Part shown: piece after piece, positions 6,236-24,719 of the stretch
How positions within the stretch are numbered: position 1 is the first letter of the stretch
Layout of the letters: each line of letters opens with the position of its first letter
NCBI GenBank assembly: GCA_021851785.1
Contig: JAJZBV010000007.1
Coordinates: forward strand, 1 to 64,000
Reading direction: 5' to 3'
Origin: Pseudomonadota bacterium
GTDB taxonomy: Bacteria; Pseudomonadota; Alphaproteobacteria; Acetobacterales; Acetobacteraceae
DNA length: 64,000 nt
The notes under the pieces: model-generated
Told to the model about the DNA's origin: nothing
The model's database searches: none
What the model saw: the letters and a program-made list of their open reading frames with translations, nothing else
Program-made: the position numbers and the translations under genes

Positions 6236-8707
6236 TCACCCGCGCAGCCGTGCCCCGGTCGCGGCGACGACGGCGGCGACGATGCGCGCCGAAATCGCCT
6301 CGATCTCGGCGTCCGTCAGCGCCCGCTCGCGCGGCTGCAACACCACCTCGATGGCGAGCGACTTCTCGCCCGCCGGCAGAGGCTCGCCGGCATAGACATC
6401 GAACAGCGCGACGCTGGCGATCAGCCCGCGCGCTACCCCGCGCGCCGCGCGCAGCACCGCTTCCGCCGGCACGTCGCGCGCCACCAGGAAGGCGAAATCG
6501 CGGCGCACCGGTTGCAGGGCGGAGAGATCGGGTGCGGCGCGGCGGCGGCGCTTGGCGGCGGGGATGGCGTCGAGGAAAATCTCGAACGCCGCGACCGCGC
6601 CGGCGATGTCGAGCGCGGCGGTGACGTGCGGGTGCAGCTCGCCGAAGGCGGCGAGCACGTTGCGGGGGCCGAGACGGAGCGTCCCGGCGCGGCCGGGATG
6701 GTAATGCGCCGGGGCCTCGGCGCTGGTCGCGAGCTGTTCGGGAGCGACGCCGAGCGCCGCCAGCACGGCGAGCGCGTCGGCTTTGGCGTCGAACGCATCG
6801 AAGGCGCGCGCCGGGGCTGCCCAATGGCGCGGCGTCGCCCCGGCGCGCAGCCCGGCGGCGATCTCCCGCGCGCCGCCTGGCGTGAATCCGGCGGCGAAAC
6901 CGGGCCCGATCTCGAATAGCGCCACGTCCTCGGCGCCGCGGGCGAGGTTGCGCGCCAAGGCGTGGGCGAGGACGGCGAGCGGGGTCGGGCGCAACTGGTC
7001 GAGATCGGCGGCGATCGGGTTGAGGAGACGAAGCTCTGCCGGCGTCTCGCCGAACCGCGCCGCATCGGGTCGCGCCATGAAGGCGAAGCTCACGCATTCC
7101 GCGAGGCCGCGCGTGGCGAGCACCCGGCGGGCGAGCGCCGCGCGCGCCCCGGCGGCGGTGAGGCTCGCCCCCGGCACCGGCGAGGGACGCGGCAGCGACA
7201 CCGCGGGCACCGCATCCAGCCCACCGAGCCGCAACACTTCCTCGATCAGATCGGCCTCCGGCACGATCGCGGCAACACTCTCGGCCAGAAGGGCGGCGCG
7301 ATCGGCGGGAATGCCCGGCGCGAGATCGAGGGCGCCGGCGGCGGCGATGTCGTTGCGCCACGAGGGAACGGCGAAAACCGCGCCCGCCGCATCACCCTCC
7401 TCGAGCGCGAAACCGAGCGCCGCGAGCCGCGCGATCGCGGTCTCGGGCGCGATCTCGACCCCGCCGAGATCGCGGAGCCGCGCAAAGCGCAGGGCGGCGC
7501 GGCGCTGCCAGCGCGGCGCGGCGCCGGCGCCGACCACCTCGCTCGCCTCGCCGCCGCAGAGAGCGAGGATCATCCGGCTCGCCGCTTCCACCGCGTCCGG
7601 CAGCAAAGCGGGGTCGATCCCGCGCTCGAAGCGGCTCCGCGCATCGGAAAGAATTTGATGCCGCCGCCCGCTCTGGCCGATCCGCACCGGATCGAAGAGG
7701 GCGCATTCGAGGAACATTTCGGTGGTCGCTTCGTCACAGCCGCTCTCGACCCCGCCCATGATGCCGGCGAGCGAGCGCGGGCCGGCCGCGTCGGCGATCA
7801 CGCAATCCTCCGGCTCCAGCCGATAGTCGCGGTTGTTGAGCGCGCGCAAGGTTTCGCCATGGCCGCGGCGGATCACCATCTCGACGCCGGTAATTTTTTT
7901 ACTATCAAAAACATGCAGCGGCCGGCCAAGATCGAAGGTGAAGAAATTGGTGATATCCACCAGGGCGTTGATCGGGCGGAGACCGATCGCGCGGAGACGG
8001 GCGGCGAGCCAGTCCGGGCTCGGGCCGTTGGTAAGGCCGCGAAAGCTCCGCCCGAGGACGTAGGGGCAGGCCTCCGGCCAATCGATCCGCCAGGCGAGCG
8101 GGCTTGCGAACCGCGCCGAGACGGCGGGCGCCGACCACGGCTTCAGCCGCCCGAGCCCGGCGGCGGCGAGGTCGCGGGCGATGCCGCGCACCGCCAGCGC
8201 ATCGCCACGATTGGGGGTGACGGCGATCTCGATCACCGGATCGTCGAGCCCGGCCCAGCCGGCGTAAGCCGCCCCGACCGGCGCCACCTCGGGCAATTCG
8301 ATGATCCCGGCATGATCCTCGCCGAGCCCGAGTTCACGGAGCGAGAGCAGCATCCCGGCGCTTTCGACGCCACGGATCTTGCCGATTTTCAGCGCGACCC
8401 CGGTGCCCGGGATCACGCTTCCGGGCGGCGCGAAGACGGTTTTCATGCCGGCCCGCGCATTGGGCGCGCCGCACACCACCGAAACCGGCGCCCCCGCCCC
8501 GATCTCGACGCGGCAGGCGCGCAGGCGATCGGCGTCCGGGTGGGGGACGGCCTCGATCACCCGGGCGATGCGGAACGGCGCGAGGGCCGCGGCGCGGTCG
8601 TCCACGCTTTCGACCTCGAGCCCGATCGCGGACAGGGTCTCGGTGATTTGCGCGAGCGGCGCCTCGGTCTCGAGATGGTCGCGGAGCCAGGAGAGGGGGA
8701 ATTTCAT
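6236..8707 (-). CDS. pheT: phenylalanyl-tRNA synthetase beta subunit
   Basis: MKFPLSWLRDHLETEAPLAQITETLSAIGLEVE N-terminus; RIARVIEAVPHPDADRLRACRVEIG tRNA-binding domain. Confidence 0.96.
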   Translation of the reverse strand: MKFPLSWLRDHLETEAPLAQITETLSAIGLEVESVDDRAAALAPFRIARVIEAVPHPDADRLRACRVEIGAGAPVSVVCGAPNARAGMKTVFAPPGSVIPGTGVALKIGKIRGVESAGMLLSLRELGLGEDHAGIIELPEVAPVGAAYAGWAGLDDPVIEIAVTPNRGDALAVRGIARDLAAAGLGRLKPWSAPAVSARFASPLAWRIDWPEACPYVLGRSFRGLTNGPSPDWLAARLRAIGLRPINALVDITNFFTFDLGRPLHVFDSKKITGVEMVIRRGHGETLRALNNRDYRLEPEDCVIADAAGPRSLAGIMGGVESGCDEATTEMFLECALFDPVRIGQSGRRHQILSDARSRFERGIDPALLPDAVEAASRMILALCGGEASEVVGAGAAPRWQRRAALRFARLRDLGGVEIAPETAIARLAALGFALEEGDAAGAVFAVPSWRNDIAAAGALDLAPGIPADRAALLAESVAAIVPEADLIEEVLRLGGLDAVPAVSLPRPSPVPGASLTAAGARAALARRVLATRGLAECVSFAFMARPDAARFGETPAELRLLNPIAADLDQLRPTPLAVLAHALARNLARGAEDVALFEIGPGFAAGFTPGGAREIAAGLRAGATPRHWAAPARAFDAFDAKADALAVLAALGVAPEQLATSAEAPAHYHPGRAGTLRLGPRNVLAAFGELHPHVTAALDIAGAVAAFEIFLDAIPAAKRRRRAAPDLSALQPVRRDFAFLVARDVPAEAVLRAARGVARGLIASVALFDVYAGEPLPAGEKSLAIEVVLQPRERALTDAEIEAISARIVAAVVAATGARLRG

Positions 8708-11735: not shown

Positions 11736-11974
11736 CCCCCGCCATTGCCGCCCTGGCGCCCCCGGGCGGCAAATCATCCCTTTTGGATCACCCCTCCCCC
11801 CTCCTGCCCCTTCCGGCGCGGTTTCGGCGCGGGTTTATCCGATCTGGACAAAACAATCGAAGACCGGCCGGCGGTTCTTGCTAGCTTGCGGGCAGCGGCG
11901 GCGATCCGGAATCGGACGCAAGGCCAGCGCAACGGGGAGGCTGTCCGATCGGAGCCGATGACCGTCAAGGGATG

Positions 11975-12004
11975 GCCCTGCCGTGGCGACGCGGCAGGGC
12001 TTTT
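11975..12004 (+). terminator. Rho-independent terminator
   Basis: GCCCTGCCG-TGGCGACG-CGGCAGGGC-TTTT: perfect 9-bp GC-rich stem plus T run. Confidence 0.8.
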
Positions 12005-12666
12005 CATATCGGTTGCGGCGGCGCGTCCAGATGACGCCAAAGATACCAGGACGCGACCGAACAGTATGGCTCCCACAGCTTCCCGAGGGCTTCGAGTGTC
12101 GCTTCGTCGCCGTAGAGGAGGCAGGCTGCACGTCGCAATCCTGCATCGCGCAATGCCAGCACGTTCGGGCGTTTAAGCCCAAAGATCAAAAACATCTCGG
12201 CCGTCCAACGCCCGATTCCAGAAACGGCCGTGAGTTCGGCAATAGCCTCCTCGTCGGTCAGTTCAGCAAGCATCGTCAAATCGAGCCGCCCATCGGTGAC
12301 ACGCTCTGCCAGGTGTCGAACGCTCCGAATCTTCGCCGCCGATAGACCAGCTTGCCGCAGCGCCTCCGGTGTTGCCCGAAGAAAGCTCTCAGGCCCAAAG
12401 CCGGGAACGATCGCTTCGACGCGTGCACGGATCGTCGCAGCAGCCTTCGCGGAAAGCTGCTGCCCCATGATCGAATTTGCCAGCGTGCGAAAGTGCTGCT
12501 GATCCCGCTCGGCCAATCCGCACCGTCCATGCGCCACCATAAGACGCGCCATCACGGCACAAGCCTGCGCCAGATGACGTTCGGCTGCTCGAATGGCTGT
12601 AGGGGTGAGGGATCGAACTGCGGGTTTCACCTCATGCTTCCGCTTTTGCGGATCGAGCTTTTCCAT
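12004..12666 (-). CDS. HhH-GPD DNA glycosylase (DNA-3-methyladenine glycosylase II-like)
   Basis: FRTLANSIMGQQLSAKAAATIRARVE, LSAAKIRSVRHLAERV, AVSGIGRWTAEMFLIFGLKRPNVLALRDAGLRRA (HhH-GPD hairpin with catalytic Asp). Confidence 0.88.
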   Translation of the reverse strand: MEKLDPQKRKHEVKPAVRSLTPTAIRAAERHLAQACAVMARLMVAHGRCGLAERDQQHFRTLANSIMGQQLSAKAAATIRARVEAIVPGFGPESFLRATPEALRQAGLSAAKIRSVRHLAERVTDGRLDLTMLAELTDEEAIAELTAVSGIGRWTAEMFLIFGLKRPNVLALRDAGLRRAACLLYGDEATLEALGKLWEPYCSVASWYLWRHLDAPPQPI

Positions 12667-13981
12667 CTCGTTTGACGGGTTCTGCCTGATGGGTCAGCGT
12701 CATTGATCGGAGGGCCGAAGCAAGGTCTGGACTCGCGAACAGGGTGAAATCTGACACCTCGCAGCAAACCGGCTTTGAATTCTCGGCTGGAAGCGGTTCA
12801 GCAAACAGGGGCGTATCGGTCGCCTTGCGCTTCGGTGTCTGCTTGCCGACAAAATCGCCCATTGGCTCGGTGCCATGCTCAAAGCGATGCAGCATCGTGC
12901 GCATGGCTTCAGGGCTGTTATCAACCCCGATCCAGTCGCGTCCGAGGGAGTCGGCCGCAACAAGCGTCGTTCCCGATCCGGCGAAGCAATCGAGAACAAT
13001 GTCTCCGGGGTTGCTGGATGCCTCGACAATACGGCGCAGAAGATTGATATTCTTCTCGGTGGGGTATCCGCTGATATGCACCATCTGATTGTGAGCGTCG
13101 CGGTAGTCGAGCCAGATATCTTGCACTGACACGCCTGGACTTTCGTCAAGATAGACCTTGCGACGTGGATTGCCGTTCTTGGACCAATAGATTTCGCCGC
13201 GAGCGTCCATCTCGTCGAGCGTTGACGGCGGAAATTGCCAGTGCTTACCCGGCGGCGGCATCATCCCGCGCCAGGGCTTGCCTGTCTCGCCGTTTCGCAC
13301 GCCCGGCGCATGAACAGGAACCTTCATATAACGCCGGCCAGTTGCAGGATCGACATACTGATATTCGCGGGCGCGCTCCTCCGTCCACGGCTCAACCTGT
13401 TTGTTCCAAACGTAGTTGGCCGACTTCGTATAGAACAGAATGTAGTCGGCTATGTTGCCATACTGATTGCGTGTATAGTTCTTTGGGTTGGACTTTTTCC
13501 GGGTGATGTAGTTTCGGAAATTGCCCGCACCAAAAATCTCGTCCATCAGGATTTTGATGTGAAACACCATCTTCGCGTCGAGATGGACATAGATCGAGCC
13601 ATCATCCGCCAAGAGCCGATGCAGCAGGATCAGGCGTTCCCGCATAAATTCGAGGTAGTCCGCTCCTTCAAAAACGTCCTCGTAGGCATGCGCGAGCTTC
13701 CGTGAATGAAAGACGGTCTGCGTCGCGAAAGGCGGGTCGATATAAACCAACCGCACCTTGCCGCAAACGCCAGGGTCTTGGGCTAGGCTGGTCAGAACGG
13801 AAAGATTTTCAGCGAAGTAAAGCCGCTTCCGCATGTTCGCGTTAGGCGTCGGGACATGCTCAAAGATGCCCGGCGTCGTCGCAAGAATTTCCTCGGCAGG
13901 CTTCTTCCCTGGATAGCCGAGAGTGATTGGCGGGGAATCCGAAACAGAGCGAATAGGGGAACGCGGAACGCCGGTTGCCAT
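12632..13981 (-). CDS. site-specific DNA methyltransferase (beta-class N4C/N6A type)
   Basis: Catalytic DPPF (VRLVYIDPPFATQTVF) precedes the SAM motif DCFAGSGTTLVAADSLGRDWIGVD. Start MATGVPRSP at 13981 with a ggggagg RBS. Confidence 0.88.
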   Translation of the reverse strand: MATGVPRSPIRSVSDSPPITLGYPGKKPAEEILATTPGIFEHVPTPNANMRKRLYFAENLSVLTSLAQDPGVCGKVRLVYIDPPFATQTVFHSRKLAHAYEDVFEGADYLEFMRERLILLHRLLADDGSIYVHLDAKMVFHIKILMDEIFGAGNFRNYITRKKSNPKNYTRNQYGNIADYILFYTKSANYVWNKQVEPWTEERAREYQYVDPATGRRYMKVPVHAPGVRNGETGKPWRGMMPPPGKHWQFPPSTLDEMDARGEIYWSKNGNPRRKVYLDESPGVSVQDIWLDYRDAHNQMVHISGYPTEKNINLLRRIVEASSNPGDIVLDCFAGSGTTLVAADSLGRDWIGVDNSPEAMRTMLHRFEHGTEPMGDFVGKQTPKRKATDTPLFAEPLPAENSKPVCCEVSDFTLFASPDLASALRSMTLTHQAEPVKRDGKARSAKAEA

Positions 13982-13995
13982 GCTCCACCCTCCCC

Positions 13996-14721
13996 TTATG
14001 ATTTCAACCATTCGAGCGTCAGACGCTCGGGAACCATCCGTAGGGTCGTCACCATGACACGACCCGGATACAGGTCTTCGATATAGGCGTAGTCCCGCCA
14101 CATCGAGCCTAGGAGCAATCCCGGCCCGTCATTCAGGAAGATCACCTTTGTTTTCAGCCCATTCGCGTTCGCATAGGTGATGATCTCCGACGCGCAATCG
14201 CGGTACTGCCCAGTGCGGTCATCTTCCTGCGCTCCGCCTCGGTCGGAGTCGTAGCGCGCCAAACCGACAGCTAGGACTTCATCACCATCGCAGATCAGAA
14301 AGTCGATCGGACGGTCAGGCTTCGTGTAGTTCGGAAAGATCGTGCCGAGCAGAACGTCTTTGCCCGCACGCTCCGGGCCGCTGAGTTTGAGGGTTGGGAA
14401 TTGCTCTCGAAGCAGAATGAAAAAGCGTTCTGTGAGGTCGTAGCCCTTCTTGCCGCGATCCTTGTATTCCCAAAGGATCGCACACAATGCCTCGTCGGGC
14501 ATCGGCCGGGTAGCAAACCGCTTCTGAACCTCGGTGATCGCACGGAAGCCAGGACCAAATTGATCGCAGATCGTTTGCGCGGCGCGCTTCTTCTTAAGCA
14601 TCTCGACCGGCGTCTCCGGGCTGACGTATTTGCGGAAAACGCGCGCGACATTGATCGCCCCGTTCGTGCTGGCGACGGACGGGCGCACCCGCTGGCGCTC
14701 CCCCTTTGACTTCATCCTCAC
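13996..14721 (-). CDS. putative type II restriction endonuclease partner of the adjacent methyltransferase
   Basis: Immediately upstream of and co-directional with the MTase; PIDFLICDGDEVLAVGLARYDSDRGGAQEDDRTGQYRD resembles a restriction-endonuclease core. The first ~26 codons are antisense to a dioxygenase remnant, so the true start is uncertain. Confidence 0.6.
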   Translation of the reverse strand: MRMKSKGERQRVRPSVASTNGAINVARVFRKYVSPETPVEMLKKKRAAQTICDQFGPGFRAITEVQKRFATRPMPDEALCAILWEYKDRGKKGYDLTERFFILLREQFPTLKLSGPERAGKDVLLGTIFPNYTKPDRPIDFLICDGDEVLAVGLARYDSDRGGAQEDDRTGQYRDCASEIITYANANGLKTKVIFLNDGPGLLLGSMWRDYAYIEDLYPGRVMVTTLRMVPERLTLEWLKS

Positions 14722-14725
14722 CTAG
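14645..14725 (+). pseudogene. 3'-terminal remnant of an intradiol ring-cleavage dioxygenase gene
   Basis: + strand reads ATLIAPFVLATDGRTRWRSPFDFILT*. The intact gene at 23877-24719 ends ATLIAPFEPAEDGRTSWRSPFDFVLTPSG* (21/26 aa identical by eye). Confidence 0.85.
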
Positions 14726-14743
14726 GGCTCTGAGGCGCGCTGA

Positions 14744-15163
14744 ATGACGGACTGCGGAAAATCGCCCATGCCGGAGGAAGACGGCGCCAGGATCATTCAC
14801 AGGATCATTGACCGGGGGACGCCGGAATCAGCGGCCATGGTCGCCAACACCCGGCGGGCGATGGCGATCACCGCGGCGCTCAACCGTTTGACGTTCGACG
14901 ATGCCGATGAAATCCGCGCTCTGTTCAGCCGGCTCATCGGCAAAACGGTGGATGCGAGTTTTTTGCTGATCCCGCCTTTCTATACCGCCGGCGGGGACGA
15001 AATCCGCATCGGGCGCAATGTCTTCATCAATCAGAACTGCACGTTCTATGACCTCGGCGGCCTCGATATCGCGGACGATGTCATGATCGAGCCCAATGTC
15101 AGCCTCATCGCGGCGGGCCGCCCGCTCGCCGCCTCGGCGCGCCGTTCGCCAGGGGCTTCCTGA
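14744..15163 (+). pseudogene. truncated maltose/galactoside O-acetyltransferase-like (LbH) protein
   Basis: RRAMAITAALNRLTFDDADEIRALFSRLIG...FYTAGGDEIRIGRNVFINQNCTFYDLGGLDIADDVMIEPNVSLIAAGRP, then homology ends; the remaining LbH hexapeptide coils are missing. Confidence 0.8.
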
Positions 15164-16106
15164 CCGTGCTGGTCTCGACGCTGGCGCTGCTGGTGCTGTG
15201 CGCGATCTTCGCGCCTTCGGCCATCGCGCCGGGAGCGCTGGCCGGCAGCCTGCCGTTCGCGGCGGTGCTGGCGATCGTCGGGCTCGCGCAGATGCTCGTC
15301 GTGCAGCAGGGAGGGTTCGATCTCTCGCTCGCCGGGGCGTCTCGCTCGCGGTGGTGATCGCAACCCATGTCCCGGCCGGCGACAGCGCGGAATTGCCACG
15401 GGCCGTGCTGCTGGCGCTGGCCTGCGCGGCGGCGGCGGGGACGCTGAACGGGGTGCTGGTCAGTGTGCTGCGGCTCAACGCGATCGTCGCCACGATCGGG
15501 ATGAACGCGCTGATCTATGGCGGCGTCTTCGCGGTCTCGGGCGGGGTTCCACGCACCACGACGCCGCTTCTCGCCGCCATTGCCGGGGGCGAGACGCTCG
15601 GGATCGGCAACGCCCTATGGTTCGCGCTGGCGACCCTGATCCTCGTTGCGCTGGTCCTCAAGAAGACCGTCCTCGGCCGCCGGTTCGAGGCGATCGGGGC
15701 GAGCCCGCCCGCCGCGCGCGCCATCGGCCTCGGCGTCCGGCGCTACCAGATCACCGCCTATGTCTCCGCGCAGGGGCTCTACACCGTCGCCGGTCTGCTG
15801 ATCGCCGGCATCACCAAGGAGCCCACCGCGTTTCAAGGTGATCCGTTGCTGCTGCCCTCGGTCGCCGTCGTGGTGCTGGGCGGCACGTCGCTCCTCGGCG
15901 GCCGGGGCTTTCCGGTCTCGACCGTGATCGCGGCCTTCTTTCTCACCCAACTGAGCCAGTTCGCGCTCGCCATCGGCGTGCCCTACTCGGCCCAGACCAT
16001 CATTCAGGCGTTCGCGCTTGGATTAGGCATCGCGGTCTATTCGCTGCGGCTGCCCAAAGGCGTCAAAAAACTGGTGAAACCGTCAAACATGGAGGAACCG
16101 AGATGA
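15121..16106 (+). pseudogene. ribose-type ABC transporter permease, 5'-truncated and frameshifted
   Basis: Frame 1: RRLGAPFARGFLTVLVSTLALLVLCAIF...LAQMLVVQQGGFDLSLAG; continues in frame 3 as GVSLAVVIATHVPAG...VSVLRLNAIVATIGMNALIYGG...GVKKLVKPSNMEEPR. The switch occurs at GGGG 15334-15337. Confidence 0.82.
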
Positions 16107-17262: not shown

Positions 17263-19794
17263 ATGTGGGACGCGGCGGTGGCTTTCGAGCATCGGGACGG
17301 GGATATGAGTGAAAGCATGGGTGGCGATGGCGCGGTGACGCTCCGCCTCGCCGGCATCGCGAAATCCTATTCCGGCGTCCCGGCGTTGTCGGATGTCGAC
17401 ATCACGTTCCATGCCGGCGAGGTGCATGCCATTCTCGGCGAAAACGGCGCCGGCAAGTCGACCCTGATGAACATCATCGCCGGCGCTCTGCCGCCCGACC
17501 GGGGCGAGATCGAATTCGCCGGGCGCCGCGTCCCCGCCATGACCCCGGAGACCGCGGCGGCGCTCGGGATCGCCATTTCCTATCAGCACCCGGCGGTGCT
17601 GGACGATCTCTCGGTGTTTGAGAACCTGCGCGTCGCGCTGCCCGCGCGCCTGTTCGCCGGGCGCCCGGCGCGCGCGGTGGCGCGGGATATTCTCGCGAGC
17701 ATGGGCCTCGACGTCCCGCTCGGCGCGCGCGGCGAGACGCTGACCGTCGCGCAGAAGCAATTGCTGGAAATCGCCAAGGCGCTCGCGGTCCGGCCGAAAG
17801 TGCTGATCCTCGACGAGCCGACCGCCTCCCTCGACCAGGACGCGACCGACATCCTGTTTCGCCGCATCCGCGAGGTGGTCCGGACAGGTACCCTGGTGAT
17901 CTACATCACCCACCGCATGGCCGAGCTGCGCCAGATCGCGCGCCGCGTGACGGTGCTGCGCGATGGCCGCGTGCAAGGCGGCGCCCTGGTCGATGAGGTC
18001 AGCGATCACGATCTGCTCGGCATGATCGTCGGCCGCGCGCTCGGCGCCACCTTCCCGCCCAAGGCGCCGCCCGGCGCGGCCGAGACGGTGCTGGCGGTGC
18101 AGGGGCTGAGCGGCCGCCGCTTCCATGGCGTCAGCTTCGAGGTCGCGCGCGGCGAGATCCTCGGCGTCGCCGGGGTCGCCGGCAACGGTCAGGCGGAGCT
18201 GATGCGGGCGCTCGCCGGCCGGCACCCGGCGGGCGGGACGGTGATCCTGAACGGGCGGGCGCTCCGGCCGCACGACCTGCTGCGGCGCGCCGCCTTCATG
18301 CCGTCCGACCGGCACGCCGAGGGGTTGGCGGCGGGGCTCTCGGTGCGCGAGAACGCTTCCCTCGCGGCGCTCGCCAAATTCGCGACTGGCGGCCTCGTCA
18401 GCCGCCGCCGCGAGCGCGACGCGGTCGGCGCGGTGTTCGCCACGCTGGCGGTGAAGACCCCTTCGATCGAGGCGCCGGTGCTCGCGCTCTCGGGCGGCAA
18501 CCAGCAGAAAGTGGTGCTGGCTCGCGCCCTGCTCGCGGCGCCGGCGCTGATCGTCGCCGACGAGCCGACCCAGGGCGTCGATGTCGGCGCCCGCGCCGAG
18601 ATCTACCGCATCCTGCGCGAGGTCGCCGCCCGCGGCACGCCGGTGATCGTCAATTCCTCGGACGCCGCCGAACTGGCAGGGCTCTGCGACAGCGTCATCG
18701 TGCTCTCGCGCGGCCAGGTGGTCGCGACCCTGACCGGCACGGAGGTCGCCGAGGCGCGCATCGTCGCCGCCGCCGTCGGCGCCGAGACGCGGGCGGCACT
18801 CGGTGCCCCGCGCGCCGCGCCGGCGAGCCGCTTGCGCCATATCGCGCGGACCGACAACGCGCCGGCGGTGCCGCTCGCGCTGGTGATCGCCGGGTTGGCG
18901 CTCTACGGCTACGGCCAGAATCCCAATTATCTCTCGGCGTTCAATCTCGCCAACATCCTGGCGCTGGCGACCGCGCTCGGCTTCATCGCCCTCGGGCAGA
19001 CGATCCCGCTGCTGCTCGCCGGGATCGATCTTTCGGTCGGGCCGCTGGCCGGGCTGCTCGTCGTCATCGCGTCGTTCTTCGTGACCGAAGGCCAAGGCGT
19101 CGCCGCCATGGCCGCCGGTTTCGCGCTGATGGCAACGGCGGCGCTCGCGGTCGGCGCGATCAATGGCCTCCTCATCCGTTTCGCCAATTTCACCCCGATC
19201 GCGGCGACGCTGGCTATGTATATCGGCTTGCAGGGATGCAGTTTCCTGCTCCGCGACGGGCCCGGGGGCTATATCGCGGGGGACGTGGTCGCGGCCGTCA
19301 ACGCGCAGATCGGGCCGGTGCCGGTCGCCTTCCTCGTGCTGGCGGCGGTGGCGGCGCTGGCCGAGATCGCTCTCCGCCGGACGCGGGCGGGCTGGCAGCT
19401 CCGCGCCGCCGGCTGCGACGAGGACGCGGCGCGCCGGATCGGGGTGCCGGTCACGCGCATCCTCGTGCTCGGCTATATCGGCGCCGCCCTCCTGACCGCG
19501 ATCGGCGCGATCATGCTGATGGCGCAGATCGGCGTCGGCGACCCGCGCCAGGGGATAAACTACACGCTCTCCAGCATCACCGCGGCGGTGCTCGGCGGCA
19601 CCAGTCTCCGGGGCGGGCGCGGCAGCTTCCTCGGGACCGTGCTCGGGGCGCTGTTGCTCACCGAGGTTTTGAATATCGTCTCGTTCCTCGGCCTCACGCA
19701 GACCTACCAATATGTGTTCCAGGGCGCGCTCATCCTGATCGCGGCGGTGGTCTATGCCGCCGTCCGCGGCCGCGATACCGGCGGCGAGGGCTGA
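17263..19794 (+). CDS. ribose-type ABC transporter: tandem ATPase (RbsA-like) fused to permease (RbsC-like)
   Basis: First NBD GENGAGKSTLMNIIAGALPPDRGEI and LILDEPTASLD; second NBD LSGGNQQKVVLARALLAAPALIVADEPTQGVDVGA; permease from ~residue 525, NILALATALGFIALGQTIPLLLAGIDLSVGPLAGL. Confidence 0.9.
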   Translation: MWDAAVAFEHRDGDMSESMGGDGAVTLRLAGIAKSYSGVPALSDVDITFHAGEVHAILGENGAGKSTLMNIIAGALPPDRGEIEFAGRRVPAMTPETAAALGIAISYQHPAVLDDLSVFENLRVALPARLFAGRPARAVARDILASMGLDVPLGARGETLTVAQKQLLEIAKALAVRPKVLILDEPTASLDQDATDILFRRIREVVRTGTLVIYITHRMAELRQIARRVTVLRDGRVQGGALVDEVSDHDLLGMIVGRALGATFPPKAPPGAAETVLAVQGLSGRRFHGVSFEVARGEILGVAGVAGNGQAELMRALAGRHPAGGTVILNGRALRPHDLLRRAAFMPSDRHAEGLAAGLSVRENASLAALAKFATGGLVSRRRERDAVGAVFATLAVKTPSIEAPVLALSGGNQQKVVLARALLAAPALIVADEPTQGVDVGARAEIYRILREVAARGTPVIVNSSDAAELAGLCDSVIVLSRGQVVATLTGTEVAEARIVAAAVGAETRAALGAPRAAPASRLRHIARTDNAPAVPLALVIAGLALYGYGQNPNYLSAFNLANILALATALGFIALGQTIPLLLAGIDLSVGPLAGLLVVIASFFVTEGQGVAAMAAGFALMATAALAVGAINGLLIRFANFTPIAATLAMYIGLQGCSFLLRDGPGGYIAGDVVAAVNAQIGPVPVAFLVLAAVAALAEIALRRTRAGWQLRAAGCDEDAARRIGVPVTRILVLGYIGAALLTAIGAIMLMAQIGVGDPRQGINYTLSSITAAVLGGTSLRGGRGSFLGTVLGALLLTEVLNIVSFLGLTQTYQYVFQGALILIAAVVYAAVRGRDTGGEG

Positions 19795-21531
19795 TCACGC
19801 GGCCGGATTTTCGCGCATCGCGGCGCGCTCGCGAATGACGCGGTAAGCGGCGGCCTCGGCATCGGCGAGCGCGCGCTTCGGCGGCTTGCCCTCGAACACC
19901 GCGGCGAAGACCTCGCCGCCGAGAATGCGCTCGATTTCGACATATTCCGCAACCGGCGGGCGCGACCAGGTGTTCAGCTCGTTCCGCCGCGCCATCCGGT
20001 CGACGAAGCTCACGATCGGCGAGGAGGCCAGCGCCTCGGGGTCGGCGCACACCGAAAAGCGTGGCGCGACCGGAAAACCGTTCTTCACATGCGCCTTCAT
20101 CGCCTCGGGCGAGGCCATCCAGGCGATGGCGTTGAGGATCTCCTGCCGGCGCTCGGCGGGCACATAGGCCGGGATGGTGAGCAGGAAGCCGCCCACCGGC
20201 GCCGTCACCTGCCGCCCCTTGAGGACCGGCGGCGTGAGATACGCGACCCGCCGCCTGACCTTGGAACTCAGCTCATGCTCGAGCCGCGCCGCGCGCATGG
20301 TCCAGGCATAGCTCATCGCCGCGTGACCCGACATGAAGCATTCGAGGTTGCGGTCGGCGTCGAACGTCGCGACCCCGGGCGGCGACACCTCGGCGAGGGC
20401 GCGCATGTAGTCCAGCGCCGCCAGGCCCTCGGCGCTGTCGATGCGGAGACGGAGATTGCTCGTGTCGAAACCGTCCAGCCAGTTTTCGCTCTTGCGCGGG
20501 ATCTCGATCACCGAGCCCTGCGACGAGGCCATGAAGAACATGAAGGCGTGGGCGATGGTCATCCCCCGCGCGCCGTTCCACGAGATGCCGTATTGCTCGC
20601 GCTCGGGCCGGTGCAGCGCGCGGGCGGCGGCGATGGTCTCGTCGAAGCTGCGCGGATAGGCGAGCGCCGCGTCCTCGAACAGGTCACGCCTGGCGGTGAG
20701 GATCTCCACCGTGCAGTAGATCGGAATGCCGTATTGCCGCCCTTTCCACCGCCCGGTGCCCCAGACCGAGGGGTGGAAATCGAGCGGATTGATCGGTGCC
20801 CGCGCCAGCGCCTCGTCGAGCGGCGCGAGCAGCCCGGCATCGGCGAAGCCGCCGAGCCAGGGCATGTTCACCGCGACCACCGCATAGGCGGTGGCGGGGT
20901 CGCGGAGCGCGATCTTCGCCTGTTCGTAAAGCTCGGGCAGATGGCGCAGATCGAAGCTGCTCTTGCGGCCGATATCGTTGCGGAAATCCGACCACATATT
21001 GCGCATCGAGACGAAATAATTGTCGTCATGCAGCAGGAAGCGGAGATTGCGCAGCGCCGCCGAGCTGATATCGCCGCCCTGAACCGGGGCGATGATATGC
21101 GCCGCGAAGTAGGAGCCGCCGAAATAATACTCCTCGGTTTCGGAGCCCGAGCGCAGGCCGAAAATCTTGGCCAGATGCGCCTTCACCGCCGTCGCGTAGT
21201 CGATGAAATCCGCGATCAATCGTTCGCTGGGGGCGAGGAGCGTCGTCTTGTGCCTCGGCCCGCGCGGCACCCGGACGATCAGCCCGTCCGCGAGCATCCG
21301 CGCGACCAGCCGGTTGCCGGTGCCCCAACTGGCCTGCGACAATTCGATCAGCGTAGACATATCGACCGGGCGCTGCTGCAAATGGCTGTCCACCAGCTCC
21401 AGCACCACGTTCCAGGTGATGTCCGGCTTCGCGCCGGGGATGCCGGCATCGAAGGGCTGGCGGATCTTGCGCAGGAAGTCGATCACCCGCGAGAGTTCAT
21501 GGTCCGAAAGCTTTCGCGTCGGTGCTGTCAT
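19795..21531 (-). CDS. MarR-type wHTH fused to a solute-binding protein family 1 domain (putative one-component transcription regulator)
   Basis: N-term WNVVLELVDSHLQQRPVDMSTLIELSQASWGTGNRLVARMLADGLIVRVPRGPRHKTTLLAPSERL (wHTH). C-term MPWLGGFADAGLLAPLDEAL...WGTGRWKGRQYGIPIYCTVEILTARRDLFED...VGGFLLTIPAYVPAERRQEILNAIAWMASPEAMKAH (SBP). No signal peptide. Confidence 0.8.
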   Translation of the reverse strand: MTAPTRKLSDHELSRVIDFLRKIRQPFDAGIPGAKPDITWNVVLELVDSHLQQRPVDMSTLIELSQASWGTGNRLVARMLADGLIVRVPRGPRHKTTLLAPSERLIADFIDYATAVKAHLAKIFGLRSGSETEEYYFGGSYFAAHIIAPVQGGDISSAALRNLRFLLHDDNYFVSMRNMWSDFRNDIGRKSSFDLRHLPELYEQAKIALRDPATAYAVVAVNMPWLGGFADAGLLAPLDEALARAPINPLDFHPSVWGTGRWKGRQYGIPIYCTVEILTARRDLFEDAALAYPRSFDETIAAARALHRPEREQYGISWNGARGMTIAHAFMFFMASSQGSVIEIPRKSENWLDGFDTSNLRLRIDSAEGLAALDYMRALAEVSPPGVATFDADRNLECFMSGHAAMSYAWTMRAARLEHELSSKVRRRVAYLTPPVLKGRQVTAPVGGFLLTIPAYVPAERRQEILNAIAWMASPEAMKAHVKNGFPVAPRFSVCADPEALASSPIVSFVDRMARRNELNTWSRPPVAEYVEIERILGGEVFAAVFEGKPPKRALADAEAAAYRVIRERAAMRENPAA

Positions 21532-21555: not shown

Positions 21556-21600
21556 AGGCGTTGCTCCCTCAGGCGTTGCTCCCTCAGGCGTTGCTCCCTC
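21556..21600. repeat. 3 x 15-bp perfect tandem repeat (aggcgttgctccctc)
   Basis: Three consecutive identical units at 21556, 21571 and 21586; the last overlaps the stop codon of the 21599-22516 gene. Confidence 0.95.
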
Positions 21601-22516
21601 AGGCGCCGGCTTCGAGCCCGTAGCTTACCCGCATCCAGCCGACGAGGGCAAAGAAGTCCTGCTCGGCATAGCCGACATTGGCCGCCGCGGTATATTGCTG
21701 CAGGATCAGGCTCACCGCCGGCATCGGCACCCGCCGCGCCCGTCCGGCCTCGGTGATCAGGGTAAAATCCTTGATCATCTGCGCGACCGAGAAGGCGGGG
21801 CTGAAATCGTGCTGGGCGATCATCTCCTGCTTGTAGCGGATGAGCGGCGAGGCGACGGCGCTTTCGGCGATCACCGCCATCATCTGGGCGTCATCGAGCC
21901 CGCCGGTCGCGCCCAGCGCCAGCGCCTCGCCGAGGATCGACGAGGTCGCCCCGACCAGGGTGTTGAGCACCAGCTTCATGTAGCGCGCCTCCTCTCCCGC
22001 CCCGAGATGGAATTTGCGCGCAGCCAGCAGGTCGAGAAACGGCGCCGCCCGCTCCCACGCCGGCTGATCGCCGGAAGCGAGCGCGGTCAGCGTCCCGGCC
22101 CGCGCGAGAGCGGTGCTGCCCGAGATCGGACAGCGCAGATAGAAGACGCCGCGGCGCGCGAGATCGGCGCCCACCCGCGCCGACACCGCCGGCGACACGG
22201 TGCTCATCTCGACCAGCACCGCGCCGGCGGCGATCTGGCCGAGGAAGCCCCCCTGCTCGCCGCCGCCCTGGATCACCTCGGCCAGCACCGCGTCGTCGGG
22301 GATGGTCGAGAAGATCAGCCCGCAGCGCGCCGCCAGTTCCCCCGGCGTCGCCGCGACATGCGCCCCGCGCGCAACCAGGCTCGCCCGGTTCTCGGCGACC
22401 GGGTCGCAGAGGGTCAGCCGATGCCCGGCCTCGATCAGCCGCGTCGCCATCGGGTTGCCCATCTTGCCGACGCCGATCCAGCCGATACCATCCTGGATGC
22501 CACGCGCGTTTGCCAC
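21599..22516 (-). CDS. NAD(P)-dependent 3-hydroxyisobutyrate dehydrogenase family oxidoreductase
   Basis: IGWIGVGKMGNPMATRLIEAGHRLTLCDP; VEMSTVSPAVSARVGADLARRGVFYLRCPISGS. Confidence 0.88.
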   Translation of the reverse strand: MANARGIQDGIGWIGVGKMGNPMATRLIEAGHRLTLCDPVAENRASLVARGAHVAATPGELAARCGLIFSTIPDDAVLAEVIQGGGEQGGFLGQIAAGAVLVEMSTVSPAVSARVGADLARRGVFYLRCPISGSTALARAGTLTALASGDQPAWERAAPFLDLLAARKFHLGAGEEARYMKLVLNTLVGATSSILGEALALGATGGLDDAQMMAVIAESAVASPLIRYKQEMIAQHDFSPAFSVAQMIKDFTLITEAGRARRVPMPAVSLILQQYTAAANVGYAEQDFFALVGWMRVSYGLEAGA

Positions 22517-22754
22517 CTCGATCTCCCCGTGAGTGCCGCACCGGGGAACACCATACCGGCGCGGCCCACCCCCGGTAGCGGCGGAATCATCCGAATTGGA
22601 TGAAATCCGCGGCGCGGCGCGGGCGGGCCTCTGCTAGTCTTGGCCGCTATGACGGTGTCCCGACGGGAGGCGGGCGCCGCGCCCGGGCTTTCGCCATCCC
22701 TCCCGCAACCGCCGCCAGGCCACAGCGGCCACCGGCCGAGCCGAGGAGGATACG

Positions 22755-23876: not shown

Positions 23877-24719
23877 ATGAGCCGCTATTTCACCGAGGCG
23901 AATTCGGACGAGATCGTCAACGCCCGCATGGGCGAGGCCGTCCCTCCGCGCCTGCGCCAGGTGATGGCGGCGCTGGTCCGCCACCTCCACGCCTTCGCCA
24001 AGGAGGTCGAACTGACCGAGGCGGAATGGGCGTTCGGCATCGATTTCCTGACCAAGGCCGGCCAGATGTGCAGCGAGGAGCGGCAGGAATTCATCCTGCT
24101 CTCCGACGTGCTCGGCCTCTCGATGCTGGTCGATGCGATCAACCACCGCCGCCCGGCGGGGGCGACCGAAAACACCGTCCTCGGCCCGTTCCACGTCGCC
24201 GGCGCGCCGCTCCGGGCGATGGGCGAGCGGATCACGCTCGATGGCCAGGGCGAGACCTGTCTCTATACCGGCCGCGTCGTCGACCTCCGTGATGCGCCGA
24301 TCGCGGGCGCGCGGATCGACGTGTGGTCGGACAACGCGGAGGGGTTTTATTCCGTCCAGCAGCCCGGCCTCCAGGACAAGTGGAACAACCGCGGCGTTTT
24401 CGTGACCGGGGCGGACGGCAAATACGACTTCATCGGCATCAAGCCGGTGAGCTACCCGATCCCGGATGACGGGCCGGTGGGCAAGATGCTGGCCGCCCTC
24501 GGCCGTCACCCGAAGCGGCCCGCGCACATGCATTTCATGATCACCGCGCCGGGCTATCAGCGTCTGGTCACCCACACCTTCGTCGGCGACGATCCCTGGC
24601 TCGACTCCGATGCCGTGTTAGGCGTGAAGGCGACGCTGATCGCCCCCTTCGAGCCCGCCGAGGACGGGCGCACAAGCTGGCGTTCCCCCTTCGACTTCGT
24701 CCTCACCCCGAGCGGCTGA
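23877..24719 (+). CDS. intradiol ring-cleavage dioxygenase (catechol/hydroxyquinol 1,2-dioxygenase-like)
   Basis: N-terminal dimerisation domain plus ATENTVLGPFHVAGAPLRAMGERI, TGRVVDLRDAPIAGARIDVWSDNAEGFYSVQ, KRPAHMHFMITAPGYQRLVTHTFV. Confidence 0.92.
   Translation: MSRYFTEANSDEIVNARMGEAVPPRLRQVMAALVRHLHAFAKEVELTEAEWAFGIDFLTKAGQMCSEERQEFILLSDVLGLSMLVDAINHRRPAGATENTVLGPFHVAGAPLRAMGERITLDGQGETCLYTGRVVDLRDAPIAGARIDVWSDNAEGFYSVQQPGLQDKWNNRGVFVTGADGKYDFIGIKPVSYPIPDDGPVGKMLAALGRHPKRPAHMHFMITAPGYQRLVTHTFVGDDPWLDSDAVLGVKATLIAPFEPAEDGRTSWRSPFDFVLTPSG

What the first reader, a model, noticed from the sequence alone, without database searches (positions are those of the whole stretch)
19795..21531. MarR-type HTH fused to a cytoplasmic solute-binding (MalE-like) domain
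578-aa protein: N-terminal ~130 aa is a winged HTH, the rest is a family-1 extracellular solute-binding fold without signal peptide. It lies next to a ribose-type ABC importer and a putative ring-cleavage catabolic cluster. This suggests a periplasmic-binding-protein fold of the ABC importer type reused as an intracellular ligand sensor for transcription. LacI-type regulators use a different (type I PBP) fold, so this is a distinct design.
Basis: partly seen in the sequence, partly recalled or inferred. Interest (0 to 1): 0.72.

Follow-up and report, generated by a model that had tools for sequence, protein, structure and literature searches.

The report
Cytoplasmic sugar-binding-protein transcription regulator family
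The gene encodes a member of an unrecognised, widespread family of bacterial gene switches, built by joining a DNA-binding head to the kind of protein that normally catches sugars outside the cell; it probably senses an imported sugar-like compound and controls the neighbouring uptake and breakdown genes.

Summary
Window 19795-21531(-) encodes a 578-aa protein with an N-terminal MarR-like winged helix-turn-helix (wHTH) and a complete MalE-type (SBP_bac_1) domain, and no signal peptide. I found about 60 relatives with the same two-domain layout, mainly in Alphaproteobacteria. Public records name them "extracellular solute-binding protein". Their SBP domains form one clade apart from the transport SBPs sampled.

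Almost all lie beside a ribose-type (CUT2) importer that has its own SBP, plus dehydrogenases and often hydroxyquinol-pathway genes.

New here: an inverted repeat, RTCC-N5-GGAY, sits upstream of the fusion gene or its operon in 30 of 36 non-redundant loci (3.6 expected). It occurs in 6 of 10 held-out loci (0.19 expected) and at 0 of 21 HTH-less homologues. Two copies lie in the window, at 22589-22601 and 11837-11849.

Best reading: a ligand-sensing local regulator, more likely activator than repressor. DNA binding and ligand are inferred, not shown.

The claimed "distinct design" is overstated. SgrR and DsvR already pair an HTH with an SBP (SBP_bac_5), and LysR regulators use a type II PBP fold. 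This is a new family and a new variant of a known kind.

The parts
19795..21531 (-). wHTH-SBP fusion regulator, 578 aa
21151..21510 (-). MarR-like winged helix-turn-helix, residues 8-127
   Evidence: AF2 helices 10-30, 38-51, 58-64, 69-81, strands 85-89, 97-101, helix 103-124; MarR hits by profile and Foldseek
21289..21327 (-). recognition helix, residues 69-81; R74 invariant and T71 nearly so across 36 relatives
21040..21150 (-). linker, residues 128-164, conserved but low-confidence (YYFGGSY...IIxP)
19810..21039 (-). MalE-type (SBP_bac_1) domain, residues 165-574
21599..22516 (-). 3-hydroxyisobutyrate-dehydrogenase-like NAD(P) dehydrogenase, first gene of the putative operon with the regulator
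   Evidence: linkage conserved in many relatives
22589..22601 (.). operator candidate O1, ATCCGAATTGGAT, in the divergent promoter
22632..22637 (+). -10-like element TGCTAG of the rightward promoter, 30 nt from O1; its position is conserved
11837..11849 (.). operator candidate O2, ATCCGATCTGGAC; identical over at least 20 bp to the ABC-operon promoter site in relative L067
22755..23822 (+). zinc-type polyol/cyclitol dehydrogenase, divergent operon
23877..24719 (+). intradiol (catechol/hydroxyquinol-type) dioxygenase
15127..16106 (+). CUT2 permease gene, 5'-truncated and frameshifted in this genome
16103..17179 (+). RbsB-like (Peripla_BP_4) exported SBP of the importer
17263..19794 (+). RbsA-RbsC-like ATPase-permease fusion of the CUT2 importer

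Best explanation
The protein is a cytoplasmic, one-component transcription regulator. Its MarR-like wHTH binds, probably as a dimer, an inverted repeat RTCC-N5-GGAY. Its MalE-type domain closes on a small polyhydroxylated ligand (imported substrate or an early catabolite; polyol, cyclitol or glycoside-like), and this changes DNA binding. Targets are local: the regulator's own operon with the dehydrogenase, the divergent catabolic operon, and the CUT2 importer operon. More likely it activates in the presence of ligand, because the operator lies upstream of the -35 region, flanked by -10-like elements about 30 nt away. Shown by computation: domain architecture, absence of a signal peptide, family and linkage, conserved operator-like repeat. 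Inferred: that this protein binds the repeat, dimerisation, the ligand class and the sign of regulation.
For: Domains and fold. No signal peptide. Family: 46 loci in genome contigs, further members by profile, and 32 plasmid records covering at least 80% of the query. The fusion SBP domains are one side of a 100/100-supported branch against 17 HTH-less SBPs. Linkage: CUT2 importer with its own RbsB-like SBP in nearly all loci with enough flank; in contrast 9 of 10 HTH-less homologues adjoin a MalF/G-type BPD_transp_1 permease. Operator: 30/36 loci against 3.6 expected from dinucleotide shuffles; held-out 6/10 against 0.19; 0/21 upstream of HTH-less homologues. Half-sites change together: GTCC/GGAC in L032-L033 and ATTC/GAAT in the 1.4-Mb genomes. 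Tandem copies lie exactly 21 bp apart in the seven Rhodobacterales-type loci with adjacent pairs. In the whole own genome the only perfect match to the scanned consensus is O2. Promoter layout. The invariant R74 lies on the predicted recognition helix.
Against: No binding, expression or ligand data exist. The repeat could be bound by another regulator, although the fusion is the common gene. The operator was discovered on the same loci as the 30/36 count; only the 10 plasmid loci are held out, and some of them are close to training loci. One held-out locus (L100) has only a one-mismatch site, two more (L104, L107) only imperfect ones, and Aminobacter L102 has its copies at other promoters of the cluster. 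Foldseek TM for the wHTH is low (about 0.4). A -35 is plausible in the Rhizobium promoters, so the activator call is weak. The importer this copy would control is damaged in the window's genome.
Confidence: 0.72

Rival explanations
1. Same regulator, but a repressor released by ligand (MarR/LacI logic).
For: Many MarR and sugar-responsive regulators repress (established knowledge). The site lies in divergent promoters next to the regulator's own operon, which suits autorepression.
Against: The repeat is centred roughly 45-55 nt upstream of the presumed start sites, not over the -10 or the start, and in clade 1 no -35 is conserved between it and the -10-like element (start sites are inferred).
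Confidence: 0.33
2. The SBP domain no longer binds a solute. It is a dimerisation or protein-docking module, for example reading the importer's state by contact.
For: No ligand is known. The fusions sit with CUT2 importers, whose SBPs are of another fold class, so solute specificity need not be shared.
Against: The full-length domain is kept over a wide range of lineages, with invariant motifs across 36 relatives, and aligns over about 400 residues to sugar- and polyol-binding SBPs. Aminobacter L102 keeps the fusion with a CUT1 importer instead.
Confidence: 0.15
3. It is an ordinary exported SBP with a mispredicted or vestigial N-terminal extension.
For: Public annotation calls it extracellular solute-binding protein.
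Against: The wHTH is conserved in every family member aligned; there is no signal peptide; each importer has its own SBP; and the operator is absent from HTH-less homologues.
Confidence: 0.03

Closest known systems
SgrR (E. coli) and DsvR/Vca0578 (V. cholerae)
   Same: Cytoplasmic regulator with an N-terminal HTH and a C-terminal ABC-type solute-binding domain (PMC13060122); linked to sugar metabolism.
   Different: Their C-terminal domain is SBP_bac_5; here it is SBP_bac_1, and no SgrR_N or SBP_bac_5 hit appears. Operator, neighbours and taxa differ.
LysR-type regulators
   Same: A type II PBP-like effector domain used as intracellular ligand sensor (established knowledge).
   Different: LysR domains are smaller and have their own HTH_1 and LysR_substrate signatures, neither of which is hit here.
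LacI/GalR regulators
   Same: A PBP fold reused for local sugar control.
   Different: Type I PBP fold (the fold of RbsB) and a LacI HTH; neither is present here.
MarR family
   Same: Winged-helix topology of the N-terminal domain; best structural neighbours.
   Different: MarR proteins are about 150 aa and sense ligand within the wHTH dimer; here a roughly 410-aa SBP domain is added.
SBP_bac_1 importers' binding proteins, e.g. 5iai, MalE
   Same: Fold and length of the C-terminal domain.
   Different: Those are exported and encoded with MalF/G-type permeases; this one is not.

Membership tests
SBP_bac_1 (Pfam PF01547) | Score above Pfam's gathering threshold | tested here: met
   84.7 bits against 26
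Exported ABC solute-binding protein | N-terminal signal peptide or lipobox | tested here: not met
Exported ABC solute-binding protein | Encoded with cognate CUT1 permeases | tested here: not met
   Neighbour is a CUT2 importer with its own RbsB-like SBP; HTH-less homologues do have CUT1 permeases
MarR family | wHTH matching MarR models | tested here: inconclusive
   Window protein sub-threshold; 13/17 relatives match MarR_2, best E 5.4e-6; structural hits are MarR, E 1.4e-4 but TM about 0.4
MarR family | Binds a palindromic operator as a dimer | not testable with these tools
   A conserved inverted repeat is found; binding not assayed
SgrR family | SgrR_N HTH and SBP_bac_5 domain | tested here: not met
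   Neither model is hit
LysR family | HTH_1 and LysR_substrate domains | tested here: not met
   Neither model is hit
LacI family | LacI HTH and type I PBP domain | tested here: not met
   Neither model is hit
Ligand-responsive one-component regulator | Effector binding changes DNA binding | not testable with these tools
   Needs biochemistry

The most novel reading that the evidence does not exclude
An uncharacterised family of one-component regulators in which a complete CUT1-class (MalE-type) binding protein has been moved into the cytoplasm and fused to a MarR-like wHTH, so that venus-flytrap closure on a catabolite controls importers of a different class (CUT2) through a defined operator RTCC-N5-GGAY. 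In Rhodobacterales two operators 21 bp apart would be bound cooperatively on one DNA face.
Probability: 0.6. Interest if true: 0.65.

Novelty: new variant of a known kind. Interest (0 to 1): 0.55.

Why it matters
Many genomes carry this protein under a transporter name, so a local regulator of sugar-like and hydroxyquinol-type catabolism is being missed. The predicted operator makes its function and regulon directly testable. It adds a further case, beside SgrR and LysR, of type II binding-protein folds used as cytoplasmic sensors, and a natural template for sugar or polyol biosensors. The open-access literature searched did not describe this architecture; subscription journals were not covered.

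Tried and rejected
Exported SBP with an artefactual N-terminus: rejected (conserved wHTH, no signal peptide, own importer SBPs). SgrR, LysR or LacI membership: rejected on domain hits.

The 17.18-17.26 kb intergenic region as operator: no site there. Window hits at 7680 and 16549 look like chance or coding matches; 11776 is next to O2 but is not conserved in L067.

Several apparent sites in relatives lie in coding sequence (for example about 13.16 kb in L027-L031, inside RbsAC) and were not counted as operators. Some of the 30/36 strict hits (L053, L061, L084, one in L004) look like chance. L061 has relaxed tandem sites instead.

Substrate identity: dehydrogenases resembling IolG and IolM plus maleylacetate reductase and an intradiol dioxygenase suggest a cyclitol or aryl-glycoside route to hydroxyquinol, but all NCBIfam scores are far below equivalog cutoffs, so no substrate is claimed. 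Literature searches on hydroxyquinol, resorcinol and inositol clusters gave nothing usable.

Full report
Observation. The 578-aa ORF lies at 19795-21531 on the minus strand. Its C-terminal 410 residues are a bona fide SBP_bac_1 domain (E 1.6e-23), closest in the PDB to 5iai and other sugar-binding SBPs. Its first 130 residues give only sub-threshold MarR_2 matches from the single sequence. Relatives settle the matter: 13 of 17 match MarR_2, best 5.4e-6. A 35-row AlphaFold2 model of the N-terminal part has pLDDT above 90 over most of residues 10-120 and shows a winged helix, and its top Foldseek hits are MarR proteins. The superposition is loose (TM about 0.4), so "MarR-like wHTH" is the right strength of claim. 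There is no signal peptide.

Family. A profile of five relatives found 46 loci in GTDB genomes, more by whole-genome profile search and 32 plasmid records: Rhizobium, Neorhizobium, Devosia, Rhodobacteraceae, Phaeobacter, Tritonibacter, Marinovum, Skermanella, Shinella, Aminobacter, a Paraburkholderia, and 1.4-Mb alphaproteobacterial genomes. The window's own genome groups with contigs titled Acetobacteraceae. Annotated records call the protein "extracellular solute-binding protein". In a tree of SBP domains the 36 fusions are one side of a branch with 100/100 support against 17 HTH-less SBPs. This is consistent with a single fusion event, within this sampling.

Neighbourhood. Nearly every fusion with enough flanking sequence lies beside a CUT2 importer that has its own RbsB-like SBP, usually with a 3-hydroxyisobutyrate-dehydrogenase-like or SDR gene, IolG-like and IolM-like dehydrogenases, and often maleylacetate reductase and an intradiol dioxygenase. 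HTH-less homologues instead adjoin MalF/G-type permeases in 9 of 10 cases. In Aminobacter the fusion sits beside a complete CUT1 importer with a separate SBP, so the fusion is not the importer's SBP there either.

Operator. Aligning the divergent promoter of close relatives exposed one conserved block, an inverted repeat TCATCC-N5-GGATGA in the window. Across the family its core is RTCC-N5-GGAY. It is present within 1.5 kb upstream of the fusion gene in 30 of 36 non-redundant loci against 3.6 expected from dinucleotide shuffles. In ten plasmid loci fetched afterwards it is in the intergenic region directly upstream of the fusion gene or its operon in 6, against 0.19 expected, and Aminobacter L102 has it in two other promoters of the cluster. 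It is absent upstream of all 21 HTH-less homologues. Half-sites co-vary: GTCC/GGAC in L032 and L033, ATTC/GAAT in the 1.4-Mb genomes. In seven Rhodobacterales-type loci tandem copies are exactly 21 bp apart, two helical turns. In the window the copies are O1 (22589-22601), between the dehydrogenase-regulator operon and the divergent catabolic operon, and O2 (11837-11849). O2 matches the promoter of the ABC operon in a 90%-identical relative and is the only perfect match to the scanned consensus in the whole 3.16-Mb genome.

Mechanism. In both clade-1 and Rhizobium promoters the repeat is flanked on each side by -10-like elements about 30-36 nt away, and in clade 1 no -35 is conserved. This places the repeat around -45 to -55 and favours activation, though weakly, because start sites are inferred. 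The likely cycle is: importer delivers substrate; the SBP domain closes on the substrate or an early catabolite; the wHTH dimer's grip on the operator changes; import and catabolism rise. Which compound is sensed is unknown.

Comparison. The idea of an HTH joined to an ABC-type solute-binding domain is not new: SgrR and DsvR carry an HTH plus SBP_bac_5 (PMC13060122), and LysR effector domains have a type II PBP fold (established knowledge). This family shares the working principle but is not a member of either, because their defining domains are not hit. It is therefore a new variant of a known kind, apparently undescribed in the open-access literature searched.

State of the window copy. About 3.7 kb of the importer operon's 5' part, present in the relative L067, is replaced in the window by 3.2 kb of unrelated DNA (11933-15126). 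The permease gene is truncated at its start and has a one-base deletion near 15345. The regulator here may thus control a broken importer. The family-level conclusions rest on relatives with intact clusters.

Noticed in passing
window 11933-15126: Foreign 3.2-kb segment (includes a DNA-glycosylase-like ORF, a site-specific DNA methyltransferase-like ORF and an acetyltransferase fragment; names read from sequence, not confirmed by a family scan) replaces about 3.7 kb of the importer operon that relative L067 keeps.
   Followed up: partly
window 15096-16106: CUT2 permease ORF is 5'-truncated and lacks one base near 15345 relative to L067; either a real lesion or an assembly error. The listed 336-aa ORF is therefore out of frame in its first ~80 residues.
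   Followed up: yes
window 14645-14722 and L067 6842-6919: A 78-bp stretch 83% identical to the 3' end of the relatives' dioxygenase gene lies beside the foreign segment, perhaps a recombination scar.
   Followed up: no
L102 (Aminobacter sp. MSH1 pUSP2) 3617 and 11662: Operator-like repeats lie in front of a CUT1 importer operon and of a maleylacetate reductase/dioxygenase operon next to a fusion homologue.
   Followed up: partly
L042, L044, L045, L046, L058 (about 0.2-1.2 kb) and L099 3246: A second conserved copy, AATTATCCATTTYGGAY, lies between maleylacetate reductase and the next genes in Rhizobium-type loci, suggesting an additional target promoter.
   Followed up: no
L030 and L069: Contigs titled Terriglobia and Solirubrobacterales carry alphaproteobacterial-type copies (84% and 35% identical); likely misbinned or mislabelled contigs.
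   Followed up: no
L057 11723: In Paraburkholderia the operator lies downstream of the fusion gene, in front of a co-directional importer operon.
   Followed up: no
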